A DNA stretch of 64,000 nucleotides, taken from the NCBI RefSeq assembly GCF_003340345.1, contig NZ_PPTQ01000003.1, positions 124,001-188,000 of the forward strand. Reading direction: 5' to 3'. Each line of letters opens with the position of its first letter. Position 1 is the stretch's first letter. Made by a program: the position numbers and the translations under genes. This document shows, in pieces, positions 2 through 18,634 of the stretch. The stretch comes from Paraeggerthella hongkongensis (lineage in GTDB: Bacteria > Actinomycetota > Coriobacteriia > Coriobacteriales > Eggerthellaceae). The notes under the pieces were generated by a model. It made no database searches and was not told the origin of the DNA. It was given only the letters and a program-made list of their open reading frames with translations.

Positions 2-841
2 GCCGCGCCTGCCGCTGCTGCGCGTTCCGGTTCGGCGTTTCTCATGCCGGTGGTAAGCGGAAGCGGAGGGGCGGGCAAAAGCAGTATTTCAACGATCGCC
101 GCCTTGCTGTCGCAGGGGCTTGGATTCGATACGCTGCTGCTCGACTTCGATTTGCAGTTCGGCGACGTGTCCGCCTTGCTGGGCGTTCGAAGCCCGTTGC
201 GCATAGAAGATGTTCTGTCCGTTCCCGCCCGTCTTTCCGGCTTGCGCCCGGAGGGCCGCATGCCCGCCTTGCTGGCTGCTCCCGAGCGTCTTGAGGATGC
301 GGAGGCCGTGGTGCAAGCGGCGCCCCAGCTTCTCGACGAGCTTATGAAGCGGTTCGACGTGATCGTCTGCAACACCGGCGCCGCTTGGGCCGAGCAGCAT
401 GCCGTGCTGCTCGAGCGAAGCTCGAAGGCGCTCTTCCTTGTCGATCAGAGGCCATCTTCGCTGCGCGCCTGCCAGCATGCGCTTGATTTGTGCGTACGGT
501 GCGGCATCGCCACCAGCCCGTTTCTCTTCGCGCTGAATCGTTGCGCCAAGAACGCTCCGCTCACGTCCATCGACGTGTCGTGCGCGCTGCAGGGCGCTCA
601 TGTTGCGGAGGTGAAAAACGGCGGGCGGGACGTCGAGGAGCTGCTGGGCGCGGGCATGCCGCTTGACCTGCTCGAATCGAAGAATGACCTGTGTACGAGC
701 CTTGAGCGGCTGCTGCTCGAAGTGCTTCCCAATGCAAGCGCCGCTGCGAGCGAGAGCTTGTTCGGCACGCACGGTTCGGGGCTGCGGCTACTGAAGGGAA
801 GGCGTTCGCGGGGAGGAAAGCGAGGGTCGTCATGTCTTTGA
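2..841 (+). CDS. TadZ/CpaE-like pilus-assembly ATPase (5' end outside window)
   Basis: The reading frame is open to the left edge, so this is the C-terminal part (279 residues) of a larger protein. A deviant Walker A motif, SGSGGAGKSS, stands at residues 19-28 of the visible part, followed by a DFDLQFGD stretch typical of the MinD/CpaE/TadZ ATPases that place Tad pilus machines at the cell pole. Full TadZ proteins usually carry a receiver-like domain before the ATPase, which would be upstream. The stop overlaps the start of the next gene, a TadA ATPase, by 10 bases, which supports a Tad role and translational coupling. Family call is firm; polar localisation is inferred from the family. Confidence 0.85.
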   Translation, partial: AAPAAAARSGSAFLMPVVSGSGGAGKSSISTIAALLSQGLGFDTLLLDFDLQFGDVSALLGVRSPLRIEDVLSVPARLSGLRPEGRMPALLAAPERLEDAEAVVQAAPQLLDELMKRFDVIVCNTGAAWAEQHAVLLERSSKALFLVDQRPSSLRACQHALDLCVRCGIATSPFLFALNRCAKNAPLTSIDVSCALQGAHVAEVKNGGRDVEELLGAGMPLDLLESKNDLCTSLERLLLEVLPNASAAASESLFGTHGSGLRLLKGRRSRGGKRGSSCL

Positions 842-16741: not shown

Positions 16742-18634
16742 ATGCGCAGAGTTTACGCGAAAGCCGTTTCGCTGCTGCTCTCGGTGCTTTTGCTGGCGGT
16801 TGGGTTCGCAGCGTGCCTCCCGCGCGAGGCGTTCGGATACGAGTACCTGCATTCCGACACGACCAGCATCTACAATCGTGCTTGGATATCCGCGAGCCCT
16901 TCGGGCTATCTTGAGCTGATCGGCTCGGACCCGAACGGCCCCAGGCCGGGCATGCCGAACTGGGAGCTTCCGGGCGGGACGAACGCTTACGTGGTGGCCT
17001 ATCAGTTCGCGATTTGGGGAGACGCCGGCGGGCAGGACGACCTTGTCTGGTACACGGCGGGCAACGGAAGCTGGTCCAGGGGCGGCGCGAACATGGGCAC
17101 GGGGGATTTGACCGGCAGCAAGAACGGCACGGGGTTCGGCTGCATCGCTACGTACGGGTACGGATGGGGCGGCACCGTCCTTTCGAGTCACGGCGGCCTG
17201 GACGAGCTCATGCACAACCATATCTACATTCACAGCACGATTGCCGGGGTGGGCGATACCGAGGGGACGGGCTTGCGCAATTACGGCAGCGTCGACTTCT
17301 GGCCGCGCGTCAGCATCCGCTACGATGCGAACGGCGGCTCGGGCGCGCCCGGCTCCCAGTACAAGTACATCGGCAGCGTTGGCGCGGTGTCTTCGAAGCT
17401 GCCCGTTCGCGTGGGGTACACGTTCGAGGGATGGTCGACTGAAAGACAGGGCCCTGTGAACGTTCGTCCTGGTCAGAAGATTGGCTATCAGGATTGGAAC
17501 CTTCAGGTGGAAAGCCTTGTGCCGCACGGATGGAGCAACGGGCCCTCTGACTTCTGGCGCGATCCGAGCGCGGGGCGTCCTTCGCCGAGCGGTTCGAACA
17601 CCATTACGCTGTATGCCCAGTGGAAGCCTGTATCCTACGTTGTCTCGTACGAAGGAAACGGCGCGACCGGGGGATCGACGAGCGATTCCGTGCACGTGTA
17701 CGACGCTCCCAAAGCCTTGACGATGAACCGGTACGAGCGCTCGTACCGGTTGACGTGCGACGCGCAAGGCGGGTCGATGGGCGTCGCCTCGCTGGCATGC
17801 GTTTGGCCGTGGGCGTCGTGGAACGCGCGTCCTGACGGCTCGGGCGAGTCCTACGGCGACGGCTCCCTGGTCAAGAACATGCGATCCACGAAGGGAAAGG
17901 CAACGCTGTACGCCCAATGGCATCCCGGCACCGTTGTTCTTCCTGATCCCGGGGAAAAGCCCGGGCACGTGTTCGAAGGCTGGTACTCGGCTGCGTCGGG
18001 AGGCGACTTCGTGGGCGACGCCGGCGCGTCGATTTCGATAGCGGCCGATACGACGTGCTACGCGCGTTGGCAAGCGCTCGCCGAGGTGACGTACTATGCG
18101 GATGGACAGGTTCTTTCGGGGTTCGGGGACCTGCTGCCCGCGGGAGTGGCGTACCGAACGAGCGCAGAGGCTGCCGCAGCGGCCGTCAAGCAGGATTGCG
18201 CGGGGTTCGAGGGGTGGTTCGTGGACGCTTCGTGCACGAAGCGCTACGCGGAAGGATCCCCGCTGCCAAGCGAAGGCCTTCGCTTGTACGGCCGCAACAA
18301 GGTTTCCGTGAGCTATGCGCAAACCGATCGCAGTACGGCGCTGTTCGCCGACCGCACGCTCTACGCCGATAAAGATGCAGGCTCGCTGCTTGATCGGGAC
18401 GCGCTTCTGCCGCCGGGCGAAACGCTTTTCTACGGCGATCGGATCACGTTCGACCGCGGGCCTTCCGTGTGGTTCGAAGATCGCGATCGCCTGCGCGAAG
18501 CGTCGTGCGAGCCGGGTGCCTACGCTACGGCCGCAGCCGAAGGGCTGCCTGCGCGCACCGTGGTGCTCACGTGCAACACGATTGCGTACCTCAACTGGCG
18601 CATTCCCCTCTACGACGGCGTAGCCGTGTCGTAG
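16742..18634 (+). CDS. Secreted InlB B-repeat (Listeria-Bacteroides repeat) protein
   Basis: A 630-residue secreted protein. A Sec signal peptide covers residues 1-32 (hydrophobic core LLLSVLLLAVGF, likely cut after FGY or AFG). Residues about 40-195 form a Gly/Trp/Tyr-rich domain with no known match to me. Three or four InlB B-type (Flg_new) repeats follow, marked by YDANGG, YTFEGWS, ITLYAQW, HVFEGWYS, CYARW and FEGWFV. The C-terminal 110 residues are unique. There is no LPxTG motif or C-terminal membrane helix. As the last gene of the pilus run it is a candidate adhesin. Confidence 0.8.
   Translation: MRRVYAKAVSLLLSVLLLAVGFAACLPREAFGYEYLHSDTTSIYNRAWISASPSGYLELIGSDPNGPRPGMPNWELPGGTNAYVVAYQFAIWGDAGGQDDLVWYTAGNGSWSRGGANMGTGDLTGSKNGTGFGCIATYGYGWGGTVLSSHGGLDELMHNHIYIHSTIAGVGDTEGTGLRNYGSVDFWPRVSIRYDANGGSGAPGSQYKYIGSVGAVSSKLPVRVGYTFEGWSTERQGPVNVRPGQKIGYQDWNLQVESLVPHGWSNGPSDFWRDPSAGRPSPSGSNTITLYAQWKPVSYVVSYEGNGATGGSTSDSVHVYDAPKALTMNRYERSYRLTCDAQGGSMGVASLACVWPWASWNARPDGSGESYGDGSLVKNMRSTKGKATLYAQWHPGTVVLPDPGEKPGHVFEGWYSAASGGDFVGDAGASISIAADTTCYARWQALAEVTYYADGQVLSGFGDLLPAGVAYRTSAEAAAAAVKQDCAGFEGWFVDASCTKRYAEGSPLPSEGLRLYGRNKVSVSYAQTDRSTALFADRTLYADKDAGSLLDRDALLPPGETLFYGDRITFDRGPSVWFEDRDRLREASCEPGAYATAAAEGLPARTVVLTCNTIAYLNWRIPLYDGVAVS

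What the first reader, a model, noticed from the sequence alone, without database searches (positions are those of the whole stretch)
2..18634. Two complete Tad motors and platforms in one continuous gene run with one prepilin peptidase
Seen: TadA-TadB-TadC at 832-4024 and again at 12882-16118, each clearly distinct, with two small Flp-like pilins and at least six TadE/TadG-like proteins between and around them. Only one prepilin peptidase and one CpaB-like protein are present, and no secretin. Inference: two pilus machines, or one hybrid machine with two motors (for example extension and retraction), share a peptidase.
Basis: partly seen in the sequence, partly recalled or inferred. Interest (0 to 1): 0.6.

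Follow-up and report, generated by a model that had tools for sequence, protein, structure and literature searches.

The report
Tandem double Tad pilus operon
A Paraeggerthella genome and its relatives carry two complete but different Tad pilus-building machines back to back in one gene run with a single pilin-cutting enzyme; the second machine's pilins all lack the glutamate that known Tad pilins need to assemble, so it is a genuine and unusual variant of a known system.

Summary
The window lies in a Paraeggerthella genome. A 24-gene run (gaps of at most 51 nt) holds set 1 (CpaB1-TadZ-TadA1-B1-C1-Flp1-TadE/G-peptidase) and set 2 (Flp2-TadE-TadE-TadG-CpaB2-TadA2-B2-C2 plus a secreted repeat protein). 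Two corrections: a second CpaB lies just upstream of the window edge, and the genome has one more prepilin peptidase, in a type IVa pilus locus. Set 1 is near-universal in Eggerthellaceae. Set 2 is a cassette of about 8.6 kb between the set-1 peptidase and an ABC-2 transporter, found in 18 of 140 family genomes (6 of 48 genera). It is not a local duplication (p-AU 1.5e-6): its TadA groups with stand-alone Tad loci that mostly carry their own peptidase. Both sets are co-inherited and under purifying selection. The unexpected feature: every set-1 Flp/TadE pilin has the canonical Glu5, while no set-2 pilin does (Gln5 in Flp2 and TadE2b in 17/17 loci). Most likely these are two Tad machines sharing the set-1 peptidase, set 2 building a non-canonical Gln5 filament or pseudopilus. 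A co-assembled pilus needing both sets, as shown genetically in Micrococcus luteus, is the main rival. An extension/retraction motor pair is unlikely.

The parts
2..841 (+). TadZ/CpaE-like ATPase (3' part; the gene starts upstream at L006:11456, preceded by CpaB1 at L006:10764-11459)
   Evidence: ParA/CbiA and MinD matches; orthologue next to TadA1 in all annotated Eggerthellaceae set-1 loci
832..2154 (+). TadA1, motor ATPase of set 1
   Evidence: PF00437 197 bits; Walker A GGTGSGKTT and Walker B GECRG intact
2124..3095 (+). TadB1 platform
   Evidence: PF00482 65 bits
3095..4024 (+). TadC1 platform
   Evidence: PF00482 51 bits
4054..4254 (+). Flp1, major pilin of set 1 with canonical G/QGTTEY site (Glu5, Tyr6)
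   Evidence: weak Pfam Flp1_like/Class III signal
4260..4469 (+). short TadE-like minor pilin with Glu5 (start codon not resolved)
   Evidence: frame conserved in all set-1 loci
4503..5033 (+). TadE-like minor pilin of set 1, Glu5
   Evidence: PF07811 35 bits
5030..7153 (+). long TadG-like protein of set 1 (707 aa)
   Evidence: PF13400 19.4 bits, below the cut-off; conserved in all set-1 loci
7144..7581 (+). TadE-like minor pilin of set 1, Glu5
   Evidence: PF07811 19.2 bits, below the cut-off; motif invariant
7578..8147 (+). conserved protein of unknown family in set 1, with one N-terminal hydrophobic segment
   Evidence: no Pfam or NCBIfam match; present in all set-1 loci
8144..8572 (+). DUF192 protein of set 1
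   Evidence: PF02643 24.9 bits, just below the cut-off; present in all set-1 loci
8569..9171 (+). protein with an N-terminal CxxC zinc-ribbon-like motif
   Evidence: sequence; weak match only; present in all set-1 loci
9168..10067 (+). A24 prepilin peptidase without methylase domain (TadV-like), of set-1 origin
   Evidence: PF01478 over cut-off, no A24_N; tree groups it with set-1 peptidases of single-set genomes
10116..10346 (+). Flp2, small Flp-like pilin of set 2 with GG/SEIVQT: Gln at +5, no Tyr at +6
   Evidence: Gln5 in 17/17 loci; found only in tandem genomes
10358..10888 (+). TadE2a, TadE-like minor pilin without Glu5 (probable CTG start, not proven)
   Evidence: PF07811 34 bits; residue at +5 varies T/A/V/S/M
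10888..11367 (+). TadE2b, TadE-like minor pilin with Gln5 (G/SETVQF)
   Evidence: PF07811 31 bits; Gln5 in 17/17
11364..11966 (+). TadG-like protein of set 2
   Evidence: PF13400 15.7 bits, weak; conserved in all tandem and most stand-alone loci
11984..12889 (+). CpaB2 (SAF + RcpC)
   Evidence: TIGR03177 95 bits over cut-off; PF16976
12876..14201 (+). TadA2, motor ATPase of set 2
   Evidence: PF00437 141 bits; best solved relative CpaF 8rkd, E 4e-82
14214..15134 (+). TadB2 platform
   Evidence: PF00482 58 bits
15186..16118 (+). TadC2 platform
   Evidence: PF00482 43.5 bits
16130..16738 (+). small membrane/secreted protein of unknown family, end of the cassette
   Evidence: no Pfam match; next to TadC2 in Paraeggerthella, Eggerthella and one Rubneribacter
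16742..18634 (+). secreted protein with Listeria-Bacteroides (Flg_new) repeats, last gene of the run
   Evidence: PF09479 69 bits; homologue at the same place in many tandem loci, no match in the 15 single-set loci
18717..22184 (-). flanking ABC-2 transporter (two permeases + ATPase), marks the right edge of the cassette
   Evidence: follows the cassette in 7 of 9 tandem loci examined, and follows the set-1 genes directly in three single-set loci

Best explanation
The run encodes two Tad (type IVc pilus) machines of different ancestry, joined in one transcription-unit-like array. Set 1 is the ordinary Eggerthellaceae Tad pilus: TadA1 drives Flp1 subunits (Glu5/Tyr6) through TadB1/C1, after the locus's own TadV-like peptidase has cut them, and builds an adhesive filament. 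Set 2 is a cassette sitting between that peptidase and the flanking ABC-2 transporter. It has its own motor, platform, pilin, minor pilins and CpaB, has no peptidase of its own, and so uses the set-1 enzyme. TadA2 drives Flp2 through TadB2/C2 to form a second, separate filament or short pseudopilus in which Gln5 (perhaps with the acidic residue at +2) replaces the Glu5/Tyr6 contacts of known Tad pili. The Flg_new-repeat protein at its end is a candidate partner or cargo. Shown by sequence: both sets intact, one peptidase in the run, cassette boundaries, separate ancestry, co-inheritance, absence of Glu5. Inferred: co-transcription, peptidase sharing, a separate second filament, and its function.
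For: Two complete sets with intact motifs and purifying selection on the genes. Gene order is identical in the tandem loci of 6 genera. Set 1 stands alone in most Eggerthellaceae (114 of 121 genomes have a TadA match, mostly a single TadA1), so it is autonomous. Stand-alone relatives of set 2 exist, most with their own peptidase, so a set-2-type machine can also stand alone. TadA2 groups with stand-alone loci (95), TadA1 with other Coriobacteriales (100); local duplication is rejected, p-AU 1.5e-6. The tandem-locus peptidase is of set-1 type. In G027, G066 and G037 the set-1 genes are followed directly by the ABC-2 transporter that flanks the cassette in tandem loci. Flp2 and TadE2b share a G[SG]E.VQ signature, while the set-1 pilins share GQ..[TV]E, as expected if each pilin set assembles with its own kind.
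Against: Flp2 has no Pfam pilin match, so its identity rests on size, cleavage-like motif, helix and position. Glu5 and Tyr6 are described as crucial for Tad pilus assembly (PMC11067988), and Glu5 mutants of type IV pilins do not homopolymerise (PMC4471445), so a pure Flp2 filament is unproven. Set 2 of the tandem type has never been found without set 1, which would also fit dependence of one machine on the other. The type IVa PilD could process set-2 prepilins instead.
Confidence: 0.55

Rival explanations
1. One composite pilus: both sets are needed to build a single functional filament. Flp2 (Gln5) is incorporated together with Flp1 (Glu5), or set 2 supplies the minor pilins and a second assembly platform.
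For: In Micrococcus luteus two tad loci, including both tadA genes, and a single tadV are all required for one Flp pilus (PMC4322843). Glu5-less pilins can be co-incorporated with Glu5 pilins into compound filaments (PMC4471445). The two sets are adjacent in fixed order and co-inherited, and tandem-type Flp2 never occurs without set 1.
Against: Set 1 is sufficient as the only Tad set in most family members, and its pilin motifs are the same in tandem and single-set loci. Each set has its own platform and a distinct pilin signature. Most stand-alone set-2 relatives have their own peptidase.
Confidence: 0.3
2. Extension/retraction pair: one filament, with TadA1 as extension motor and TadA2 as retraction motor, like PilB/PilT.
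For: Two motors lie in one run.
Against: A PilT-like retraction motor works on the existing platform, whereas TadA2 comes with its own TadB/C, pilin, minor pilins and CpaB in every locus. TadA2's closest solved relative is CpaF, which both extends and retracts (PMC12019362, PMC11300603; abstracts). Single-set genomes do without TadA2.
Confidence: 0.05
3. Set 2 is a Tad-derived secretion or pseudopilus apparatus that exports the Flg_new-repeat protein instead of building a surface pilus.
For: No set-2 pilin has Glu5. A Flg_new-repeat protein closes the cassette in many tandem loci and has no match in the single-set loci. Flg_new-like proteins also lie near several stand-alone set-2 loci.
Against: The Flg_new protein has an ordinary N-terminal hydrophobic (Sec-like) segment, so it needs no special exporter across the membrane. 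Such repeat proteins are found elsewhere in this genome (another on contig C45). In several genera only about 180 residues match.
Confidence: 0.08
4. Set 2 is a decaying duplicate without function.
For: It is absent from most of the family.
Against: Motifs intact in nearly all loci, dN/dS about 0.04-0.5, Flp2 core nearly invariant across six genera, and not a duplicate of set 1.
Confidence: 0.02

Closest known systems
Micrococcus luteus tad-1/tad-2 competence pilus (PMC4322843, PMC8467076)
   Same: An actinomycete with two tadABC sets and one TadV-type peptidase.
   Different: There the loci are about 1.2 Mb apart, only tad-2 has an Flp gene, TadB and TadC are fused in tad-2, and pilins have G/XXXXE. 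Here the sets are adjacent, each has its own Flp and CpaB, and set-2 pilins have no Glu5. Joint function is shown there and untested here.
Canonical Tad/Flp (type IVc) pilus of Caulobacter and Aggregatibacter
   Same: Set 1 has CpaB, TadZ, TadA, TadB, TadC, Flp with G/XXXXEY, TadE, TadG and a peptidase without methylase domain. TadA2 matches CpaF structures.
   Different: No secretin, and a second full motor/platform/pilin set with Gln5 pilins.
Myxococcus Kil system (PMC12075869)
   Same: A Tad system encoded in two gene clusters with several minor-pilin sets.
   Different: Kil is described with one motor (KilF), one platform pair (KilGH) and a secretin; here there are two motors and two platforms in one run.
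Multiple separate tad loci, e.g. three in Vibrio vulnificus (PMC6748444)
   Same: Several Tad systems in one genome.
   Different: Those are described as distinct loci; here two unlike lineages share one gene run and one peptidase.
MSH pili, which lack a peptidase gene (PMC6668835)
   Same: A type IV filament system that must borrow a peptidase from another system.
   Different: MSH belongs to another family of type IV filaments, and the donor is not the neighbouring gene set.

Membership tests
Tad (type IVc) pilus, set 1 | CpaF/TadA-type motor with two single-domain platforms TadB and TadC | tested here: met
   PF00437 and two PF00482 proteins over cut-off
Tad (type IVc) pilus, set 1 | Small Flp pilin with G/XXXXEY | tested here: met
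   Flp1 G/QGTTEY, invariant in tandem and single-set loci
Tad (type IVc) pilus, set 1 | TadV-type A24 peptidase without methylase domain | tested here: met
   PF01478 over cut-off, no A24_N match; GHGD motif
Tad (type IVc) pilus, set 1 | CpaB/RcpC and TadZ | tested here: met
   TIGR03177 over cut-off for CpaB1 upstream of the window; TadZ by ParA/MinD-like domain and position only
Tad (type IVc) pilus, set 2 | TadA, TadB, TadC, CpaB and TadE-like proteins | tested here: met
Tad (type IVc) pilus, set 2 | Flp pilin with Glu5-Tyr6 | tested here: not met
   Gln5 and Thr/Val6 in 17/17 loci; no Pfam pilin match
Tad (type IVc) pilus, set 2 | Own prepilin peptidase | tested here: not met
   The only peptidase of the run groups with set-1 enzymes; the genome's other one is in a type IVa locus
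Tad (type IVc) pilus, sets 1 and 2 | Secretin (RcpA/CpaC) | tested here: not met
   No PF00263 match in the genome; expected, since these bacteria are not known to have an outer membrane
Two complementary Tad sets making one pilus (M. luteus type) | Two tadA/B/C sets with one TadV | tested here: met
Two complementary Tad sets making one pilus (M. luteus type) | Both sets required for the same filament | not testable with these tools
   needs gene deletions and pilus detection
PilB/PilT-like extension/retraction motor pair | Second motor without its own platform | tested here: not met
   TadB2 and TadC2 follow TadA2 in every annotated tandem locus
Recent local tandem duplication | The two sets are each other's closest relatives within the tandem clade | tested here: not met
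   Bipartition supports; p-AU 1.5e-6 against

The most novel reading that the evidence does not exclude
Set 2 is a Tad machine whose whole pilin complement has dispensed with Glu5. The two adjacent sets, each with its own motor and platform, jointly build one heteropolymeric Flp1/Flp2 pilus in which Gln5 subunits can assemble only alongside Glu5 subunits.
Probability: 0.18. Interest if true: 0.75.

Novelty: new variant of a known kind. Interest (0 to 1): 0.45.

Why it matters
Glu5 is treated as near-essential for type IV filament assembly, and in Tad pili Glu5 and Tyr6 form the core hydrogen-bond network. Here nature supplies a conserved, complete Tad set with Gln5 next to a canonical set in the same gene run, in anaerobic gut bacteria of the genera Eggerthella, Gordonibacter, Rubneribacter, Senegalimassilia and Paraeggerthella. 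That makes two questions directly testable: whether a Tad filament can form without Glu5, and why M. luteus needs two Tad sets for one pilus. It also gives a fixed-site, gain-or-loss example of how one type IV filament system can come to lean on another's peptidase.

Tried and rejected
Local duplication: rejected by trees and AU test. 'One CpaB only': wrong, the window edge hid CpaB1. The support values printed were partly misplaced by rerooting; one search recomputes them from unrooted bipartitions and only those are used. Whether the TadA1/TadA2 split is older than the class Coriobacteriia stays open: the first tree joins all Eggerthellaceae/Coriobacteriales TadAs (93), the better-sampled second tree puts TadA1 with a phylum-wide second TadA class (76). 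Promoter and terminator scans gave nothing above chance; a weak terminator-like stem at 18652-18666 fits the end of the run but is not evidence. Paper searches for a described double Tad locus in Eggerthellaceae found none in the held library. No structure prediction was run: a monomer model of a 50-residue helix would not separate the rival filaments.

Full report
What was checked. The window is bases 124001-188000 of contig C23 of a 2.86-Mb, 53-contig genome whose Tad locus is 98% identical in TadA2 to Paraeggerthella hongkongensis. The coordinates of both TadA-TadB-TadC triplets are right, apart from a two-codon difference at the start of TadA2. The run begins before the window: L006 shows CpaB1 (10764-11459; TIGR03177, 92 bits against a cut-off of 71) and the start of TadZ. 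From CpaB1 to the Flg_new-repeat protein there are 24 genes on one strand with overlaps or gaps of at most 51 nt, most with a GGAGG-like ribosome site. The claim of a single CpaB is therefore wrong. The claim of a single peptidase is right for the run, but the genome holds a second one, PilD, in a type IVa locus. No secretin exists.

Distribution. Of 121 family genomes, 114 have a TadA1-like gene and most have only that one; a second TadA about 11-13 kb downstream occurs in six genera. The set-2 pilin Flp2 occurs in 18 of 140 family genomes, in six genera, and no convincing match occurs outside them in 300 genomes of the class (three matches at E 0.016-0.04 with 30-41% identity are noise). Profile annotation of 40 loci shows one invariant order. 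Set 1 is CpaB1-TadZ-TadA1-TadB1-TadC1-Flp1-TadE-TadE-TadG-TadE-X-DUF192-zinc-ribbon-(peptidase). Set 2, where present, follows as Flp2-TadE2a-TadE2b-TadG2-CpaB2-TadA2-TadB2-TadC2. Named examples are Paraeggerthella, Eggerthella sinensis, Rubneribacter, Gordonibacter and Senegalimassilia.

Origin. TadA1 and TadA2 share 45% identity, TadB 27%, TadC 26%; the two Flps give no alignment. Unrooted bipartitions put TadA2 of all tandem loci together (100), join it with stand-alone Tad loci of the same and a neighbouring family (95), and put TadA1 with TadA of other Coriobacteriales genomes (100). Forcing the TadA1 and TadA2 of tandem loci into one clade is rejected (p-AU 1.5e-6). Most stand-alone set-2-like loci carry their own peptidase, but the peptidase of the tandem loci groups with the set-1 peptidases of single-set genomes. 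The same ABC-2 transporter trio follows the cassette in 7 of 9 tandem loci and follows the set-1 genes directly in single-set genomes G027, G066 and G037. So set 2 is a cassette of about 8.6 kb at a fixed site. Concatenated trees of set 1 and set 2 agree on the well-supported genus-level splits among tandem loci, and the tandem state needs three changes on the set-1 tree. This fits joining once with later losses, but the direction is not proven.

Function of the parts. Both motors keep Walker A, Asp-box and Walker B motifs in nearly all loci, and TadA2 aligns over 395 residues with CpaF structures. The genes of both sets are under purifying selection (dN/dS 0.04-0.6 by Nei-Gojobori; distant pairs are near saturation and only indicative).

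The unexpected feature. In set 1, Flp1 and the three TadE-like pilins have Glu at mature position 5 in every tandem and single-set locus. In set 2, Flp2 and TadE2b have Gln at that place in 17 of 17 loci, TadE2a has T, A, V, S or M, and TadG2 has no acidic residue there (TadG1 also lacks one). Pilins of stand-alone set-2 relatives mostly keep Glu5 (for example QGLIEY, QGSVEF, SVAVEY), so its loss is specific to the tandem set. In Caulobacter, Glu5 and Tyr6 of the Tad pilin form the core hydrogen bonds and are described as crucial for assembly (PMC11067988). Glu5 mutants of other type IV pilins do not form homopolymers but can join wild-type subunits in compound filaments (PMC4471445). Flp2 lacks both Glu5 and Tyr6, yet its mature helix SEIVQTVIVLGFAVGLGAAL is nearly invariant across six genera, as expected of a packed filament core.

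Mechanism. The best-supported reading is two machines that share the set-1 peptidase, with set 2 forming a non-canonical Gln5 filament or pseudopilus. The distinct N-terminal signatures (GQ..[TV]E against G[SG]E.VQ) suggest each pilin set assembles with its own kind; this is inference. The main rival is a co-assembled pilus. It has a direct precedent: in Micrococcus luteus two tad loci and one tadV are all needed for one Flp pilus (PMC4322843). The extension/retraction idea is unlikely, because TadA2 always brings its own platform and pilins and because CpaF is itself bifunctional (PMC12019362, PMC11300603; abstracts).

Novelty. Two Tad sets with one peptidase are known in an actinomycete, and several tad loci per genome are common. 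What I did not find described in the held papers is the conserved tandem joining of two Tad lineages and a complete Tad pilin complement without Glu5. I rate it a new variant of a known kind.

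Noticed in passing
L006:9570-10156 (upstream of the window): A Phd/YefM-like antitoxin and YafQ-family toxin pair sits shortly before the Tad run.
   Followed up: partly
L006:3187-8898 (upstream of the window): Two large surface proteins, one with a Cna_B domain and one with SHIRT, Ig-like and Big_3 domains, the latter with near-identical internal repeats.
   Followed up: partly
L119:14695-18849 (-), contig C34: A 1384-aa protein with an N-terminal prepilin methylation motif in the type IVa pilus locus: a giant modular prepilin candidate.
   Followed up: no
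L120:8693-12610 (-), contig C45: A further small type IV filament locus (PilT-like ATPase, platform protein, prepilin-like proteins) in the same genome, beside the type IVa locus on C34 and the two Tad sets.
   Followed up: no
window 7578-9171: Three accessory genes (an unknown protein, DUF192 and a zinc-ribbon-like protein) accompany set 1 in all Eggerthellaceae Tad loci examined; their role in Tad pili is unknown.
   Followed up: partly
L077 (G192) and G257:C15:687030-695585: Other Actinomycetota genomes also hold two TadA genes about 5-7 kb apart, so tandem Tad motors may have arisen more than once.
   Followed up: partly
phylum-wide TadA tree: Many Actinomycetota genomes carry two classes of TadA that may match the M. 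luteus tad-1/tad-2 pair; support for the deep split is only moderate.
   Followed up: partly
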